Shown: positions 20,627 through 27,291 of the stretch, piece after piece
Numbering within the stretch: the stretch's first letter is position 1
Layout: every line of letters starts with the position of its first letter
Assembly: GCF_000527155.1 (NCBI RefSeq)
Contig: NZ_AZUQ01000001.1
Span: 800,554-864,553, forward strand
Length of the DNA stretch: 64,000 nucleotides
Direction: 5' to 3'
From: Haloglycomyces albus DSM 45210
Lineage (GTDB): Bacteria; Actinomycetota; Actinomycetes; Mycobacteriales; Micromonosporaceae
Notes under the pieces: model-generated
The model's database searches: none
What the model saw: only the letters and a program-made list of their open reading frames with translations
Told to the model about the DNA's origin: nothing
Position numbers and translations under genes: made by a program

Positions 20627-21157
20627 TCACAAGCCATTTGACCAGACCTCAGCATTTGATTTCGCCGAATCTGAAGCAGTCAATATTTCGTCCACCTTTT
20701 CGAGTCCTTCCTCCAACGACCCCAAGGTGTCATCTACCAGACTGCTACTGGACCCCTCCGTCGCGCGTTGGATCGTTTCCAACGCTTCTTCAACCTGTCC
20801 TCGGGCAGTCTGAACGTGCGCATCACATTCTGTGCGAACTGAGTCAACAAGGTCGAATACAGCTGACTTCAGTTCCGCAACACTACCGGAACTCCCAACT
20901 GACGGACCCGATCGTGCGGCCACCCATGACGTAGCGGCATGCTTGGCATAAGCCGCAGCAGCTCCACCAGCAGCAGCCCCTCCCGCCACGCCAGCAGGTC
21001 CAAGCGCTTTAAATCCACTAAACGCGCCAGCTGCCGTCGAAACCCCACTCACGATGTTATGAAGGAAATCTCCAGCAAATCGACTGCGGTTCTTTGATTT
21101 AGCAATCTTAAATACTGAGGGCTGTCCTCGTCCTTCAGGTTTCCCAATGCCCCTCAT
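20627..21157 (-). CDS. Gly/Ala-rich protein with coiled coil, second gene of a pair
   Basis: 176-aa protein. The N-terminus is basic. Residues about 35-70 are a Gly/Ala-rich hydrophobic stretch (GFKALGPAGVAGGAAAGGAA) resembling glycine-zipper membrane segments. The C-terminal half is acidic and heptad-like (VEEALETIQRATE, GSLEEGLEKVDEIL). Its start overlaps the stop of the upstream 200-aa gene (ATGA), so the two are coupled. A glycine zipper plus coiled coil suggests membrane insertion or oligomerisation, which is inference. No family recognised. Confidence 0.6.
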   Translation of the reverse strand: MRGIGKPEGRGQPSVFKIAKSKNRSRFAGDFLHNIVSGVSTAAGAFSGFKALGPAGVAGGAAAGGAAAAYAKHAATSWVAARSGPSVGSSGSVAELKSAVFDLVDSVRTECDAHVQTARGQVEEALETIQRATEGSSSSLVDDTLGSLEEGLEKVDEILTASDSAKSNAEVWSNGL

Positions 21158-21756
21158 TTAGCAGGCTCCAAATGTCCACATTGCATTGAAATCATCAAAG
21201 GTATATCTGACATGAAATCGGTGGCAATCGCTTTAACATCTGCGGTATTCGCCATCTCTGCGATCTTTTCGCATGCCCCCCAAATAGATACAAACTTATG
21301 GGCTAGAATCCAGACCCCTCTGTTTAGACCACTGATCTCAATATAGTTTTCTTGATCTGGACCGATGCGGAACTTGTCAGGTGAATCAGGAAGGTTTCCC
21401 CAACTCACAGCAGTAGGAGCCATCTTGAATGACCGCAGGAATGATTCAACAGAGTCCGCCTCATAATCGAATTGAATGAGAAGATTTAGTTCTTTCAATC
21501 GAAAGAAGTGCCGTTTGATTTCGAGTCGATTCAAGTGGTCGTTTTCTGATTGAACATCCTTTACAAGACTGTCGATCCCGTACTTGCGCTGGCTATGTAG
21601 CTCGGCATTATGATGACTGATGCGCCAAACGGCCCATTCTTCATCTGTGACTTCTACGGTCTCCATGCCGAGTTGGACTTCACAACACTCAAGTTCACGG
21701 TTTTCATTGAAGTACGGCCCAAGCGATGTGCCTACAGGGATGATTGTCTTGACCAT
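21154..21756 (-). CDS. Hypothetical protein (200 aa), first gene of a pair
   Basis: Begins MVKTIIPVGTSLGPYF with AGGAGG seven bases upstream. It contains an acidic N-terminal part, a Lys/Arg-rich helix region (RLEIKRHFFRLKELNLL) and conserved-looking Trp residues. Base composition is clearly more AT-rich than the flanking core genes, indicating transfer. It is coupled to the Gly/Ala-rich protein. The pair could be a small defence or toxin module, but nothing in the sequence proves that. Confidence 0.6.
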   Translation of the reverse strand: MVKTIIPVGTSLGPYFNENRELECCEVQLGMETVEVTDEEWAVWRISHHNAELHSQRKYGIDSLVKDVQSENDHLNRLEIKRHFFRLKELNLLIQFDYEADSVESFLRSFKMAPTAVSWGNLPDSPDKFRIGPDQENYIEISGLNRGVWILAHKFVSIWGACEKIAEMANTADVKAIATDFMSDIPLMISMQCGHLEPAK

Positions 21757-21843
21757 GAAGTTGCCTCCTATATGGCGTCCTTATACGCTTCAGCTGTGCT
21801 AATAGCTTGTGTTATTACAGCATTGAACGAACTGGATTCCTGA

Positions 21844-21930
21844 CTACAACGCGCGAACGCCGAAGCGGCGAGCAACCTCGGTGACCGGATACCCGTCTAA
21901 AACTTCTATCACCGCTCGAAAGCGGTACTC
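21844..21930 (-). pseudogene. Transposase N-terminal relic (IS481/IS3-type helix-turn-helix)
   Basis: Minus strand reads VEYRFRAVIEVLDGYPVTEV then ARRFGV before stopping three codons later. This is the characteristic opening of IS481/IS3-like transposases, broken inside the helix-turn-helix. No further transposase sequence follows, so it is a dead fragment marking past insertion in the island. Confidence 0.55.
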
Positions 21931-22135
21931 GACAATCCAGTCTGCTTCGTTCTCCACCGATATGAAGAGAAAGCGTAAGTGAATACCCATCGCATTTAGG
22001 TCAGAAGCATCAATAATGTAATGAGCCCGTAAGCCTGCGGAAAGACCGTCAAAGGCCTTCAGAAACCTTGGTATCAAGGAAGTCCAGAGCCTTCACACAC
22101 ACTGGAATTACGTGCTGGCTTCCGGAGCAATAATA

Positions 22136-23302
22136 TCACTCACGGAGTGATTCAATCCTGGCCGTGTAGTCCTCTGCCAACGCAGGGGAACATTCGTCAA
22201 GCGCCGACTCCAGCTCAGCAGCAACCATAACCAAAGACGGAAGACTCTTTCGAGCCCCTTCAAGGGCCTGCACTCCAAGTGCATGAGCTTCTTGAGCCTC
22301 ACCTTGGTGCGCCGCTACAACTCCTAGAGTCAAACGCGCCTCAGCCATTCGCATCGGGCTCAAATCCTCTCCACTTCGACCCGTGCCTTGGCGCAGGACT
22401 TCGTAAGCATGGGAGGAAGCAAGGGTGTCAGCACCAGCGAGACGATACGTATCCATTGCGTAAAAGTTATGTTTTGCCGGATCAACGACAAAATGGTGGT
22501 CAGTCCGATCAGGTATCGACATTGATTCCACTACTTGTCGCGAAGCATCCAGTGCTGTTCGCACCTGTTGGGCATTCCCAAGCCGTGCAAGTGCCTTCGC
22601 TTCCTGCGAGAGAAGTTGGGCTGATACATAATAGTTTCTTCCAACCCCGAGGCCGGCTTTCGTTTCCGTGAGAACGTCCCGGTATCGACCTTGTGTGAGG
22701 TTGAACCAAGCTGACATCTCAAACGACCATGCTTCAATTTCCCGGTGCCCTGCTTCCTTAGCGAGATCCCGAGCGGCACGTCGCGTTGCTTCGGCTCCAC
22801 GGCGCAATCCCATGTCATATTCAAGGCATCCCGAAAGTAGGGCCAACCAACCTGCTGAGACGAGAAGTTCCCGATGTTCTCTCAAACCTATGGGGCGTTG
22901 TAGGAGTCCTGACGCCTCGGTGATTACCTGCTGTGTTTCAGCCCGAAGTGTGGGCGCAGGCGTGTTCTTGTAGCGGCAGCAGAGTTCGAAGACGGTTGCT
23001 TCTAGCTGATCAAGCGTCTGCGTGGAGGTATCACGTGACCTGAGCCGATCTAGCAGTTCTACGGTCTCCAGCGGTCGCATATCCTGCGCATCGATGTTGT
23101 CTAGGTGAGCGACCCCAATCAATTCTCCCTTGGCCCGCAACGCCTTATCAAGGTCCTGGACTTGTTGCCCACTTGGCGCATGTTTCCCGGTTTCCCAGAA
23201 ACCGATATATTGTCGCGACCATCCCGACCGCTGCGCTAGTCCAGATTGCGACAGGCCGCGCTCACTTCTCAGTCGTCTCAAGGTCTCTGGGAAGGTCGCC
23301 AT
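22136..23302 (-). CDS. XRE-family regulator with TPR-like C-terminal domain
   Basis: 388-aa transcription regulator. The N-terminal helix-turn-helix (residues about 5-60: LRRLRSERGLSQSGLAQRSG, then WSRQYIGFWETGKHAP) is of the XRE/Cro type. Residues about 75-380 are alpha-helical repeats of the TPR kind often found in actinobacterial regulators of small secreted peptides. It is transcribed divergently from the 66-aa gene, the cationic peptide and the methyltransferase, so it is the likely regulator of that cluster. Two 11-bp repeats in the shared promoter region may be its operator. Confidence 0.85.
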   Translation of the reverse strand: MATFPETLRRLRSERGLSQSGLAQRSGWSRQYIGFWETGKHAPSGQQVQDLDKALRAKGELIGVAHLDNIDAQDMRPLETVELLDRLRSRDTSTQTLDQLEATVFELCCRYKNTPAPTLRAETQQVITEASGLLQRPIGLREHRELLVSAGWLALLSGCLEYDMGLRRGAEATRRAARDLAKEAGHREIEAWSFEMSAWFNLTQGRYRDVLTETKAGLGVGRNYYVSAQLLSQEAKALARLGNAQQVRTALDASRQVVESMSIPDRTDHHFVVDPAKHNFYAMDTYRLAGADTLASSHAYEVLRQGTGRSGEDLSPMRMAEARLTLGVVAAHQGEAQEAHALGVQALEGARKSLPSLVMVAAELESALDECSPALAEDYTARIESLRE

Positions 23303-23364
23303 CGTAATTAGCAGTCCTTAGCAGTTAAGTCGTTGACCGGCATCACATGTTTAAACAATCATAG

Positions 23365-23397
23365 ACCCATGGAACAGGAAAAGTACACCCGTGGAAC
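23365..23397. promoter_or_regulatory. Direct repeats in the divergent promoter region (possible XRE operator)
   Basis: ACCCATGGAAC (23365-23375) and ACCCGTGGAAC (23387-23397) differ at one base and start exactly 22 bases apart, about two helical turns. They sit between the regulator gene and the 66-aa gene. Confidence 0.5.
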
Positions 23398-23442
23398 GCA
23401 ATGTCACCTCACAATAGCCAGTAAATTCTCCGAGGTCCTCAT

Positions 23443-23643
23443 ATGAATTGGCAGGTGACTATTGATCACGATGGTGCGGAGTTCCGCTCCCCTCAAGGAG
23501 AACTGGAATTGAGAGTGGGTAGACGAATAGGCGATGTCGAGTACTACTCGGTTCTTGCCGAACGCGCCCCCGCTTCCCAGACCTATCTCCTCTGCAAAGC
23601 ACTTGACCTGCTCCCAGACGACTTTTTCAGCCAAATGACCTAA
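23443..23643 (+). CDS. Small hypothetical protein (66 aa), first gene of the RiPP-like cluster
   Basis: Begins MNWQVTIDHDGAEFRSP; GAGG lies seven bases before the ATG. The predicted protein is acidic and largely beta-like, with no signal peptide and one Cys. It is the first gene downstream of the putative regulator operator and is followed by a 208-base hairpin-rich leader before the cationic peptide gene. It could be an accessory or leader-binding protein. No family recognised. Confidence 0.6.
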   Translation: MNWQVTIDHDGAEFRSPQGELELRVGRRIGDVEYYSVLAERAPASQTYLLCKALDLLPDDFFSQMT

Positions 23644-23724
23644 TCCCGATGGTGCACCCCGTGTCGGGGACTGAGGTTGCGCTGGTTGGGGTTCCTGACC
23701 GACACCGGGAGCCCCTATTGAGAC

Positions 23725-23812
23725 TGCCCGTCCCGCCCAGGCCTCCCTCTGGGGCAGCAGTCACAGGACGGGCACCGGTGGCCCGGCGACCTGGCAGTTT
23801 ACCCGGGCCACC
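23725..23812 (+). promoter_or_regulatory. Two strong hairpins in the leader of the cationic peptide gene
   Basis: Stem 23725-23733 with 23766-23774 (9 bp plus nested pairing) and stem 23777-23786 with 23803-23812 (10 bp, perfect) lie back to back, 39 bases before the peptide start. They could terminate the upstream transcript or shape expression of the peptide. Confidence 0.6.
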
Positions 23813-23851
23813 ACCAACCCAACAGAAAATACGAGTAGAAAGGAGTATCCC

Positions 23852-23989
23852 ATGGGCAAGAAAGACGACCGGGACATGGGTGAAGGTAAACACTCGAAGG
23901 AGACACGCACCGACGGCCACAAGCGAGGCTCACGAGGCCCGTTCGTTGACCCCAACCACGGCGGCAAGAAAGGCAAACGCGGTAAGTAG
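23852..23989 (+). CDS. Cationic 45-aa peptide, candidate RiPP (imiditide-type) precursor
   Basis: Begins MGKKDDRDMGEGKHSKE and ends KKGKRGK; 14 Lys/Arg against 7 Asp/Glu, no cysteine. An excellent AAAGGAG sits six bases before the ATG. The stop is two bases before a PIMT-like methyltransferase gene. From memory, imiditides are RiPPs in which a stand-alone PIMT homologue turns an Asp of a strongly positive precursor into aspartimide; this pair fits that layout. The best Asp is Asp21 (TDGH), because Asp-Gly favours the ring. Asp33 precedes Pro (VDPN) and cannot form it. No core/leader boundary can be seen. Confidence 0.7.
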   Translation: MGKKDDRDMGEGKHSKETRTDGHKRGSRGPFVDPNHGGKKGKRGK

Positions 23990-23991
23990 TC

Positions 23992-25026
23992 ATGGATCAA
24001 CACTGGAAACAGATGCTCACGCAACTGAAGGGCGACGGCTACCTCCTCTCCAAACGTTGGGAGGAAGCGTTCTCCAGTGTTGACCGGGCCGCCTTCCTCC
24101 CTCCACGCATCGATGGGATCGAGAAATCTCGCCGTTTCAACGAGTGGAAGGAAGCGGCCTACTCACTGCGGTCGATCGTCACGAAACGGAAGACGAACGG
24201 GACACCGGCCAGCTCGTCGAGCGACCCGCGCGTCATGCTCGACATGCTGGAGACCCTCGAGTTGAAGCCCGGCATGACGGTTCTGGAGCTTGGGACGGGC
24301 ACCGGATACAACACCGCCCTGCTTTGTGAGGTCGCAGGCACGGAGAACGTAACGTCCATCGACATCGACTCCGACGTAACGCTGTCGGCCCGGATTAAAC
24401 TGTCCAGCGCCGGATACCCGTCGGTCATGGCATTGACGCGGGACGGCAAAGAAGGGCACGCGTCGAAGGCGCCGTATGACCGCCTGATCGTCACCTACGC
24501 TGTGGATCGTCTTGAACCGGAATGGCTACAGCAGATCGCCGACGGCGGTTTGGTCATCGTCCCGTGGGAGAACGACCTCGGCTCACAGGTGGTCGCACAG
24601 TTCCGAGTACATAGTGGGCAGGCGACAGGGCGTGCGACGGCCGAATGCGCGTTCATGTTCGACCGCTCCGAGCACGAACCGAAGCGCACCCAGAGCGCCG
24701 CAACCTACAGCACGACCACGAATTTCAGCCCCCAGTATTTCCGCGAGTACGCCTCGGCGGACCTCTGGATCATCGACCAGATTCCTGGAATTGCCCTCTA
24801 CCCTCACGACGACGTGTACATGTTCACGCGCGGCTCCGATGTGGCGCTGCTCGGTTTGGAGCCCGACGAGGACGAGCGCTACCCGGTCATGGGCGATGGA
24901 GACCCGGGTTTTTGGGATGAGATCGAGCGGGCGTATTCCTCATGGTTCGTGGCGGGTCGTCCTTTCTATGAGGATTACCGCCTGAAGGTCGACCCGTCCG
25001 GCATCATAACCGCCGAAGTGAGGTAG
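23992..25026 (+). CDS. PIMT-like (protein-L-isoaspartate O-methyltransferase family) methyltransferase
   Basis: 344-aa SAM-dependent methyltransferase. The PCMT-type SAM motif VLELGTGTGYNTALL lies near residues 96-110, followed by SIDID (acidic ribose-binding end of strand 2) and DRLIVTYAVDRLE, the family's post-II motif region. Unlike housekeeping PIMT (about 210 aa) it has a long C-terminal domain (about 210-344), acidic toward the end (LEPDEDERYPVMGDGDPGFW), as in PIMT homologues dedicated to RiPPs. It is translationally adjacent (two bases) to the 45-aa basic peptide, so modification of that peptide is the best hypothesis. Confidence 0.8.
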   Translation: MDQHWKQMLTQLKGDGYLLSKRWEEAFSSVDRAAFLPPRIDGIEKSRRFNEWKEAAYSLRSIVTKRKTNGTPASSSSDPRVMLDMLETLELKPGMTVLELGTGTGYNTALLCEVAGTENVTSIDIDSDVTLSARIKLSSAGYPSVMALTRDGKEGHASKAPYDRLIVTYAVDRLEPEWLQQIADGGLVIVPWENDLGSQVVAQFRVHSGQATGRATAECAFMFDRSEHEPKRTQSAATYSTTTNFSPQYFREYASADLWIIDQIPGIALYPHDDVYMFTRGSDVALLGLEPDEDERYPVMGDGDPGFWDEIERAYSSWFVAGRPFYEDYRLKVDPSGIITAEVR

Positions 25027-25780: not shown

Positions 25781-27046
25781 CTAGCCCAGCAGACCCTCTT
25801 GCTTCGCGGATTTGAGGGAAGGGTCCACCGTATGGGTGGGGCCTACCAGGTCACCCACCGCGTCCAAGGTCTTCAGACCTTCCCCGGTGTTGTAAACGAC
25901 GGTCTCGGCGTCCGGATCGAGTTTGCCGTCGCGCAAGAGCTTCCGCAGCACGGCCACCGACACGCCTCCTGCCGTTTCGGCGAAGATTCCGGTCGTGGCC
26001 GCCAGCAGGCGAATGCCTTCACGGATCTCGTCGTCGTCGACCTTGTCGAACGCGCCGCCGGTGGAGCGGGCCGACTCGATGGCGTACGGTCCCGCTGCCG
26101 GGTCTCCGATATTGAGGCTCTTGGCGATCCCGGTGGGCTTGACCGGATCGATCACGTCGGTATCGGCGTTGAAGGCGTCAGAGATAGGCGAGCAACCGGC
26201 CGACTGCGCCCCGAAGACACGTACTTTCCCCGAGTCGGTCAGACCGATGTCCACGCAGTCGTCGAACGCCTTGTGCACCTTGGTCAGCAACTCGCCGGAC
26301 GCGGCGGGTATCACGACCTGTTCGGGGAGACGCCAGCCCAGCTGCTCGGCGACCTCGTATCCCAGGGTCTTGGAACCTTCGGCGTAGAACGGGCGAATGT
26401 TGACGTTCACGAAGGCGGTGTTTTCGAATTCGTCCGTTTCACACAGCATGGAACACAGCCGGTTCACATCATCGTAGGAACCTCGTACGGCCACCAGGGA
26501 ACCGCCGTATACGGCGGTAGTGATGACTTTGCCACGCTCCAGGTCGTGCGGAATGAACACGATCGATTCGCGTCCGGCGCGAGCGCCGTGCGCGGCAACG
26601 GAATTGGCGAGGTTTCCGGTGGAGGCGCAGGCGAATCGGTCGAAACCGAGGTACCCGGCGGCGGTGAGTGCCACCGACACTACTCGGTCTTTAAAGGAAT
26701 GGGTGGGGTTGGCGCTGTCGTCCTTGACCCACAGTTTTCGCATGCCCAGTTCCCGGGCCAGGTTGTCGGCCTCGATCAACGGTGTCATTCCCGGATTGAG
26801 ACTGACACGGTCGGAGGCTATGTTTCCCACAGGGAGAAGTCCGGCGTACCGCCAAATGTTGTGAGGACCGGCTTCGATCTGTTCGCGTGTCACGCGTGCC
26901 AAAGCGGTCGAGTCGTATTCCACTTCCAGGGGACCGAAACACTGCCAACAGGCATGTTGCGCAATAAGATCATAGGTTTTTTCGCAATTGCGACAGATGA
27001 GACCTACGGCAGGCGTCGGGCCGAAAGAAGTACGTGCGGATGACAT
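25781..27046 (-). CDS. thrC: Threonine synthase
   Basis: PLP enzyme converting O-phosphohomoserine to threonine. The 421-aa product has four N-terminal cysteines (18, 21, 33, 36: CRNC and CWQC) in a zinc-ribbon-like cap. The PLP Lys is Lys119 in HSFKDR, and ASTGNLANS and PAASGE form the phosphate-binding loops. ATG 27046 was chosen because GGGAGGAG lies six bases upstream; the ATG at 27064 is inside that leader. A SAM-I riboswitch aptamer covers the leader, with its closing helix next to the ribosome binding site. Confidence 0.93.
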   Translation of the reverse strand: MSSARTSFGPTPAVGLICRNCEKTYDLIAQHACWQCFGPLEVEYDSTALARVTREQIEAGPHNIWRYAGLLPVGNIASDRVSLNPGMTPLIEADNLARELGMRKLWVKDDSANPTHSFKDRVVSVALTAAGYLGFDRFACASTGNLANSVAAHGARAGRESIVFIPHDLERGKVITTAVYGGSLVAVRGSYDDVNRLCSMLCETDEFENTAFVNVNIRPFYAEGSKTLGYEVAEQLGWRLPEQVVIPAASGELLTKVHKAFDDCVDIGLTDSGKVRVFGAQSAGCSPISDAFNADTDVIDPVKPTGIAKSLNIGDPAAGPYAIESARSTGGAFDKVDDDEIREGIRLLAATTGIFAETAGGVSVAVLRKLLRDGKLDPDAETVVYNTGEGLKTLDAVGDLVGPTHTVDPSLKSAKQEGLLG

Positions 27047-27058
27047 TAGAGGCTCCTC

Positions 27059-27173
27059 CCTCATCTTTCCCGCTCAAATCTGGATCTCAGCACGGGCCGG
27101 ATTTGGCACCTGCCTTTTCAAGGTGGTTGCCGCAGTATCAACGGGCCGGTCCCCTCAACTGCTCTGGATGAAG
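27059..27173 (-). promoter_or_regulatory. SAM-I (S-box) riboswitch upstream of thrC
   Basis: On the minus strand the aptamer signature is visible in order: AGAGCAGTTGAGGGGACC, GGCCCGTTGA, TGCGGCAACC, P3 hairpin CACCTTGAAAAGGCAGGTG, GGTGCCAAATCC and a P4 stem (GCTGAGAT / ATTTGAGC). P1 can form between CTTCATC (27173-27167) and GATGAGG (27065-27059), directly beside the GGGAGGAG ribosome binding site. This points to translational control. Established family: SAM-I. Its use in front of threonine synthase is less usual than on methionine genes. Confidence 0.85.
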
Positions 27174-27291
27174 TACCTCTCGGATGCTACGTGCCGGGTT
27201 CACACTTTGACAAGAACTTCCCATATACCGGAAGCCGGAACCGCGTCATCAGTATTGGCACCGCTCTTATCAGCGAATACGCCGACCCCTT

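What the first reader, a model, noticed from the sequence alone, without database searches (positions are those of the whole stretch)
22136..25026. Putative aspartimide (imiditide-type) RiPP cluster: cationic 45-aa peptide plus dedicated PIMT homologue
Seen: a 45-aa Lys/Arg-rich peptide with an excellent ribosome binding site ends two bases before a PIMT-family methyltransferase that carries an extra acidic C-terminal domain. Both sit behind a divergent XRE-TPR regulator and a 66-aa gene. Known (from memory): imiditides pair a stand-alone PIMT homologue with a highly positive precursor and turn Asp into aspartimide. Inference: Asp21 (TDGH) is the modified residue, since Asp33 precedes Pro and lacks the needed amide. 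No protease or transporter is seen, so export or function is open.
Basis: partly seen in the sequence, partly recalled or inferred. Interest (0 to 1): 0.8.

Follow-up and report, generated by a model that had tools for sequence, protein, structure and literature searches.

The report
Two-gene imiditide (aspartimide peptide) cluster
A bacterial gene pair encodes a small, strongly basic peptide and an enzyme that probably rewires one aspartate in it; it looks like a distant new member of a recently described natural-product family (imiditides, also called type I pamtides), so it is a sound find but not a new kind of system.

Summary
A 45-aa peptide (net charge +7, AAGGAG six bases before its ATG) ends two bases before a 344-aa PIMT-family methyltransferase with an acidic extra C-terminal domain. 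The AlphaFold model (pLDDT 94) has Thermotoga PIMT (1DL5) as best PDB match across both domains, and the WxxxGxP motif of RiPP-associated PIMTs is present. In a sample chosen for likeness to imiditide enzymes, 101 of 173 related methyltransferase ORFs have a candidate small imiditide-like peptide beside them; a few candidates are spurious. The window peptide resembles 91 curated ones beyond composition (mean score reached by 1 of 400 shuffles). It shares a GKH-x6-DGHK core with several of them and FVDP with four. The enzyme is divergent (28-35% identity to 34 relatives) and falls outside the well-supported imiditide clade, although one clade is not rejected (p-AU 0.44). Verdict: divergent new member of a known kind. 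The modification and the biological role are untested. In passing: cultured Streptomyces phages carry the same kind of pair.

The parts
23852..23989 (+). 45-aa precursor peptide (P0001), net charge +7
   Evidence: ORF and translation; likeness to 91 precursors beside related methyltransferases
23840..23845 (+). AAGGAG ribosome binding site, 6 bases before the ATG
   Evidence: sequence
23885..23893 (+). GKH motif (residues 12-14), shared with the N-terminal part of many precursors
   Evidence: the peptide picker favoured such starts, so its frequency is inflated
23912..23914 (+). codon of Asp21 (TDGH), predicted site of methylation and aspartimide formation
   Evidence: position in the GKH-x-DG core; inference, not tested
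23942..23953 (+). FVDP motif (residues 31-34), shared with four precursors; Asp33 precedes Pro
23960..23986 (+). basic C-terminal tail GGKKGKRGK, likely docking element
   Evidence: sequence; last residues of SpaA and NmaA are needed for modification according to PMC13001092 and PMC10787088 (passages)
23992..25026 (+). PIMT-family peptide aspartyl O-methyltransferase (P0002), 344 aa
   Evidence: Pfam PCMT 116 bits; TIGR04188 229 bits, below its cut-off of 380; fold
24283..24306 (+). SAM-binding motif LELGTGTG region (residues 98-105)
   Evidence: alignments
24658..25023 (+). extra C-terminal domain (residues 223-344), net charge -12
24865..24876 (+). acidic stretch DEDE (residues 292-295)
   Evidence: sequence; comparable to the DEDGD loop of NmaM described in PMC13001092 (passage); homologous position not shown
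24943..24963 (+). WFVAGRP = WxxxGxP motif (residues 318-324)
   Evidence: W318 and P324 invariant in 35 sequences; motif named in PMC13001092
22136..23302 (-). divergent HTH (XRE-type) regulator with weak TPR/NsdA-like C-terminal part; probable but unproven partner
23443..23643 (+). 66-aa ORF of unknown function between regulator and peptide; membership in the cluster not supported
   Evidence: one 83% paralogue elsewhere in the own genome, no match in 60 relatives; no methyltransferase seen among the ORFs read around the paralogue

Best explanation
A two-gene imiditide/type I pamtide cluster. The basic linear peptide docks through its Lys/Arg-rich tail on the acidic C-terminal domain of the methyltransferase. 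The enzyme methylates the side-chain carboxylate of Asp21 with SAM. The backbone amide of Gly22 then attacks the methyl ester and gives an aspartimide (-18 Da against the unmodified peptide), which partly hydrolyses to isoaspartate and aspartate. The divergent HTH regulator probably controls expression. Shown by sequence: gene layout, enzyme family and domain make-up, motifs, charge, likeness of the peptide to precursors beside related enzymes. Inferred: every chemical step, the residue, the docking, the regulation. The biological role is unknown for the whole class; the likeliest here is a cationic peptide that acts on membranes or on polyanions, with low confidence.
For: Peptide and enzyme gene two bases apart, strong RBS. 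PCMT domain plus an extra C-terminal domain; model pLDDT 94.0, best PDB match 1DL5 over about 358 columns; its C-terminal part has helices and strands in the order reported for RiPP-associated PIMTs (order from PMC10787088 section 2.2). WxxxGxP with W318 and P324 invariant in 35 sequences. Housekeeping PIMT models stay below their cut-offs (118 of 188 and 99.9 of 159 bits). 101 of 173 related methyltransferase ORFs have a candidate peptide, 19 sit by an ATP-grasp gene, 1 by a tetracysteine peptide, 52 show none. Window peptide against 91 curated precursors: mean z 1.48, reached by 1 of 400 shuffles. Peptide +7 against enzyme C-terminal -12; +7 is reached by 1 of 91 precursors.
Against: Methyltransferase identity to 34 relatives is only 28-35%, TIGR04188 is below its cut-off, and in the careful tree the 36 imiditide/cysimiditide enzymes form a clade (100/98.7) without it. 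Of its 10 best matches only 3 have a candidate peptide. The maximum single z (4.8, against L184) is reached by 10 of 400 shuffles, so no single precursor is a clear homologue. The peptide has no match below E 0.018 in 199 other family genomes and none in plasmids. The charge correlation over 91 pairs is weak (rho -0.24, p 0.02, relatedness not corrected), so charge is poor evidence of pairing. L184 has DS instead of DG.
Confidence: 0.82

Rival explanations
1. An orphan PAMT: the enzyme modifies another protein or repairs isoaspartate, and the small ORF is an unrelated basic peptide or not a substrate.
For: 5 of the 10 best matches have neither a candidate peptide nor an ATP-grasp gene. PMC10787088 (passage) reports 3653 enzymes of this type without a clue to a substrate. 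The enzyme lies outside the imiditide clade.
Against: Two-base spacing with a strong RBS; peptide family likeness beyond composition; housekeeping PIMT models below cut-off.
Confidence: 0.1
2. A genuine imiditide-type pair, but the enzyme was recruited separately from another PAMT branch to an imiditide-like precursor (convergent assembly).
For: The 36-member imiditide/cysimiditide clade has support 100/98.7 without the window enzyme; the window enzyme is shorter and lacks segments present in the eight-sequence alignment.
Against: Holding the enzyme with that clade is not rejected (p-AU 0.438), nor is joining it with the FVDP enzymes (0.341) or with the L050 group (0.284); long branch (1.38) and odd composition make its place unsure.
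Confidence: 0.15
3. The enzyme acts on the 66-aa product (it also holds a DG) rather than on the 45-aa peptide.
For: The 66-aa ORF lies in the same direction 208 bases upstream of the peptide and holds DG.
Against: Its 83% paralogue in the same genome has no methyltransferase among the ORFs read beside it; it does not look like any precursor collected here (compare; not scored).
Confidence: 0.03

Closest known systems
Imiditides / type I pamtides (NmaA-NmaM, SpaA-SpaM; PMC13001092 passages and conclusion, PMC10787088 passages and section 2.2; the original imiditide paper PMC10947588 was not held)
   Same: Two genes, precursor of about 45 aa rich in Gly, Lys and Asp, PAMT with C-terminal domain, WxxxGxP, acidic stretch, basic tail of the precursor
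   Different: Enzyme only 28-35% identical to the relatives aligned here and outside their clade in the tree; precursor has only 2 Pro of 45, is at the basic extreme (+7), and has DG-His rather than the Asp-His of NmaA. NmaA and SpaA sequences could not be compared (not held)
Cysimiditides / type II pamtides (e.g. L072, Actinomadura syzygii)
   Same: Two-gene layout and related enzyme; highest identity of the window enzyme in the tree set was to L072 (35%)
   Different: No cysteine in the window peptide, so no tetracysteine motif
Graspimiditide PAMTs (TIGR04188, beside ATP-grasp genes)
   Same: Best NCBIfam model for the window enzyme (229 bits)
   Different: Below the cut-off of 380; no ATP-grasp gene among the neighbours scanned
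Thermotoga maritima PIMT (1DL5)
   Same: Same two-domain fold, best PDB match
   Different: A PIMT with a C-terminal extension but not tied to a precursor peptide in the review; 22% identity

Membership tests
Imiditide / type I pamtide | Two-gene cluster of precursor and PAMT without another primary RiPP enzyme | tested here: met
   ten flanking ORFs scanned, none a RiPP enzyme
Imiditide / type I pamtide | PAMT with extra C-terminal domain and WxxxGxP | tested here: met
Imiditide / type I pamtide | Precursor of about 45 aa rich in Gly, Pro, Asp, Lys with a conserved Asp near Gly or Pro | tested here: met
   10 Gly, 9 Lys, 5 Asp, but only 2 Pro; conserved DG core by comparison
Imiditide / type I pamtide | Charge complementarity of basic precursor and acidic enzyme domain | tested here: inconclusive
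   +7 against -12 in the window, but across 91 pairs the correlation is weak and many precursors are neutral or acidic
Imiditide / type I pamtide | Enzyme belongs to the clade of imiditide enzymes | tested here: inconclusive
   outside the 36-member clade (100/98.7) but one clade not rejected, p-AU 0.438
Imiditide / type I pamtide | Aspartyl methylation and aspartimide formation on the linear precursor | not testable with these tools
   needs co-expression and mass spectrometry
Cysimiditide / type II pamtide | CxxCxGxG-D-CxxCxGxG motif in the precursor | tested here: not met
   no Cys in P0001
Graspimiditide | ATP-grasp maturase beside the methyltransferase | tested here: not met
   no ATP-grasp match among the flanking ORFs scanned
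Housekeeping PIMT | Reaches the curated score of PIMT equivalog models | tested here: not met
   NF001453 118.1 of 188, TIGR00080 99.9 of 159.05

The most novel reading that the evidence does not exclude
Imiditide pairs behind an HTH-TPR regulator are a small regulated module that moves between phages, plasmids and actinomycete chromosomes, and the aspartimide peptide serves phage-host or host-host conflict rather than being a classical secreted natural product. The window locus (divergent HTH regulator, small ORF, peptide, methyltransferase) has the same order as the cultured Streptomyces phage PapayaSalad (divergent regulator, small ORFs, tRNA, 48-aa peptide, methyltransferase).
Probability: 0.1. 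Interest if true: 0.7.

Novelty: new member of a known kind. Interest (0 to 1): 0.35.

Why it matters
It adds a divergent, very basic imiditide pair, proposes one testable residue (Asp21) and a shared core (GKH-x-DG) across varied precursors, and widens the sequence range of enzymes that may act on linear peptides. The role of aspartimide peptides is open according to the 2026 review (PMC13001092, conclusion read); phage-borne pairs seen in passing would give a handle on it.

Tried and rejected
Direct search for the peptide: 200 family genomes gave only the own copy below E 0.018 (136 of 200 genomes had some match at E up to 1, taken as noise), and none in plasmids. Viral contigs with the window enzyme alone: nothing. 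The window enzyme in 396 genomes of the phylum at E 1e-37: own copy only. Rfam on 23300-24050: nothing at E up to 1; the GC-rich leader before the peptide folds no better than shuffles (z -0.85, 36 of 200 as good). Folding without an alignment failed (pLDDT 34.6). HTH regulator association: XRE-type HTH within 1.5 kb upstream in 12 of 101 loci with a candidate peptide (7 divergent), 7 of 52 without, 0 of 19 beside ATP-grasp, 0 of 1 tetracysteine; many loci have shorter flanks, and the difference is not a finding. Charge pairing as proof of recognition: weak. The FVDP group is small: enzymes like L163 in 4 of 338 genomes.

Rows dropped: from 101 candidate peptides, 99 unique; 91 used after leaving out L182, L229, L015, L087, L096, L008 and L065 (judged spurious or out of frame), L009 and L153 (copies), and a second L176 ORF. 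The tree used 34 of 101, 16 of 19, 1 of 1 and 14 of 52 rows of the four classes by cap; five rows (L261_own, L047, L059, L024, L088) were dropped for the careful tree. L052 counts as 'no peptide' although it is a near relative of L053, so 52 is an over-count.
Full report
What is there. In the window, a 45-aa ORF at 23852-23989 (+) with AAGGAG six bases before its ATG is followed, two bases after its stop, by a 344-aa ORF at 23992-25026. The peptide has 9 Lys, 5 Arg, 5 Asp, 2 Glu, 10 Gly and 2 Pro: net +7. Upstream and divergent lies a 388-aa HTH protein (22136-23302), and between them a 66-aa ORF (23443-23643). The right flank holds a PLP-dependent enzyme, a pterin-binding enzyme, a HAD-type enzyme and a DUF5667 protein; the left flank a GNAT protein and ORFs without Pfam match. 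No ATP-grasp, protease or transporter was among the ten flanking ORFs scanned. The window lies in a complete 3.5-Mb chromosome. Its family code is shared by a genome whose locus L004 carries the same methyltransferase as a Natronoglycomyces albus plasmid (identical rows), so it is an actinomycete; no name is given.

The enzyme. Pfam PCMT scores 116 bits. The best NCBIfam model is TIGR04188, the methyltransferase of ATP-grasp peptide systems, with 229 bits against a cut-off of 380; housekeeping PIMT models are further below their cut-offs. PHROGs 13505, a phage methyltransferase family, matches residues 19-337 with 208 bits. An alignment with 34 relatives (28-35% identity) keeps W318 and P324 of WFVAGRP invariant, together with the SAM-binding glycines. 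A model without alignment was useless (pLDDT 34.6); with the 35-row alignment it reached pLDDT 94.0 and pTM 0.90. Its best PDB match is T. maritima PIMT 1DL5 (E 1e-23, TM-score 0.60/0.65, 22% identity, both domains aligned with rmsd 6.5). Sequence search of the PDB also gives only PIMTs above the weakest rows (12 hits in all). Residues 223-344 carry -12 and hold DEDE at 292-295.

The relatives. Of 173 methyltransferase ORFs of 300-460 residues, 101 have a candidate imiditide-like peptide, 19 an ATP-grasp gene, 1 a tetracysteine peptide and 52 none of these. The loci were chosen for likeness to imiditide enzymes, so this share is not a natural frequency; a few candidates are spurious and a few true ones are missed. 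In 99 unique candidates DG occurs in 82 (shuffled mean 61.9, maximum 77 of 500); an early GKH-type motif in 66 (mean 3.7, but the picker favoured it); and the motif followed within 2-14 residues by DG in 60 (mean 18.2, maximum 32). Related sequences are counted each, so these are not independent.

The window peptide among them. Against 91 curated precursors its mean z-score over shuffles of itself is 1.48, reached by 1 of 400 shuffles; the best single match (L184, z 4.8) is reached by 10 of 400 shuffles as a maximum. So it belongs with the set as a whole, though no single precursor is a clear homologue. The alignment to L074 puts GKH-x6-DGHK on GKH-x6-DGHK; that to L184 joins FVDP. FVDP occurs in L154, L163, L167 and L184, WVDP in L050, IVDP in L053. 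In the FVDP group the Asp of RDG is followed by Gly three times and Ser once. Pro after Asp33 has no amide hydrogen, so an aspartimide there is chemically excluded (established chemistry). Asp21 is therefore the likeliest site. PMC13001092 (passages) says that NmaA has an uncommon His after its modified Asp and that Gly is common in the other classes; the NmaA and SpaA sequences themselves were not available (the original imiditide and cysimiditide papers are not held).

Where the enzyme falls. In a careful tree of 63 enzymes, 34 imiditide-type, one cysimiditide-type and L052 form one side of a branch with support 100/98.7, and the window enzyme lies on the other side with a long branch (1.38). 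Forcing it together with that group costs 3.2 log-likelihood units (p-AU 0.438), with the FVDP enzymes 9.4 (0.341), with the L050 group 11.3 (0.284); none is rejected. So it may be an early branch of the imiditide enzymes or a separate recruitment. Of its ten best matches outside its genome in the order-level search, three (L147, L149, L150) have a candidate peptide, two an ATP-grasp gene and five neither.

Regulator and small ORF. The phage PapayaSalad has a divergent HTH regulator, two small ORFs, a tRNA, a 48-aa peptide and the methyltransferase in this order. Across loci, an XRE-type HTH lies within 1.5 kb upstream in 12 of 101 with peptide, 7 of 52 without, 0 of 19 with ATP-grasp. This does not separate the classes. 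The 66-aa ORF has one paralogue in the own genome (83%) and none in 60 relatives; no methyltransferase was seen among the ORFs read beside the paralogue. I do not count it as part of the cluster.

How it works. Best reading: the basic tail docks on the acidic C-terminal domain, the PIMT domain methylates Asp21, Gly22 closes the ring, and the product is an aspartimide that can open to isoaspartate. This follows the chemistry shown for NmaA, SpaA and others (PMC13001092, PMC10787088: passages and named sections). Docking by charge is in doubt as a general rule from my data: over 91 pairs precursor and enzyme charge correlate only weakly (rho -0.24, p 0.02, uncorrected). Function: unknown for the class; PMC13001092 (conclusion) suggests membrane contact for the basic ones. 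I commit to a cationic peptide acting on membranes or polyanions, with low confidence.

Verdict. Real, correctly read by the first stage, and a divergent new member of a known kind (imiditides/type I pamtides, of which 1414 were counted in print according to PMC13001092). Interest is moderate: the class is young and its function is open, but this pair does not by itself change the picture.

Noticed in passing
L046 (KY092481.1, Streptomyces phage PapayaSalad) 2280-3619; also H43-H48: Cultured Streptomyces phages carry a methyltransferase of this type (8 of the 12 phage records matched cover at least 80% of the query); in PapayaSalad a 48-aa Gly/Ser-rich peptide ends 8 bases before it, behind a divergent HTH regulator. 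Very similar peptides lie in viral contigs L264-L266 and in Streptomyces L064 and L066. No paper held both 'pamtide' and 'phage'.
   Followed up: partly
L263-L314 (viral contigs): 21 of 52 methyltransferase ORFs in viral contigs have a candidate small peptide, 7 others an ATP-grasp gene (52 of 80 fetched loci examined); some contigs may include host DNA and some candidates are doubtful.
   Followed up: partly
L049 (NZ_CP036456.1, Streptomonospora litoralis plasmid phiM2) 1331-3965: Plasmid-borne 46-aa peptide, methyltransferase and HTH regulator in a row.
   Followed up: partly
own genome G000:C1, about 138-142 kb (L261, L262): An asparagine-synthetase-like macrolactam cyclase (NF033561 217.5 bits, cut-off 300) followed by a PIMT-like protein of 331 aa: perhaps a lasso-type cluster; no small ORF with DTAD or DSAD was listed nearby.
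   Followed up: partly
own genome G000:C1, about 1750 kb (L260): A second PIMT homologue, FxLD-system methyltransferase TIGR04364 with 363.9 bits above its cut-off of 320.
   Followed up: no
window 27058-27174 (-): SAM riboswitch (RF00162, 75.2 bits) in front of the PLP-dependent enzyme gene 25781-27064.
   Followed up: no
window 21000-22000: Local GC dip (0.469 against about 0.6 around it) with ORFs 20627-21157 and 21154-21756 (-) that have no Pfam or PHROGs match.
   Followed up: no
window 23443-23643 and own genome 1353428-1353619: A 66-aa gene with an 83% paralogue in the same genome and no match in 60 related genomes: a lineage-restricted small gene.
   Followed up: partly
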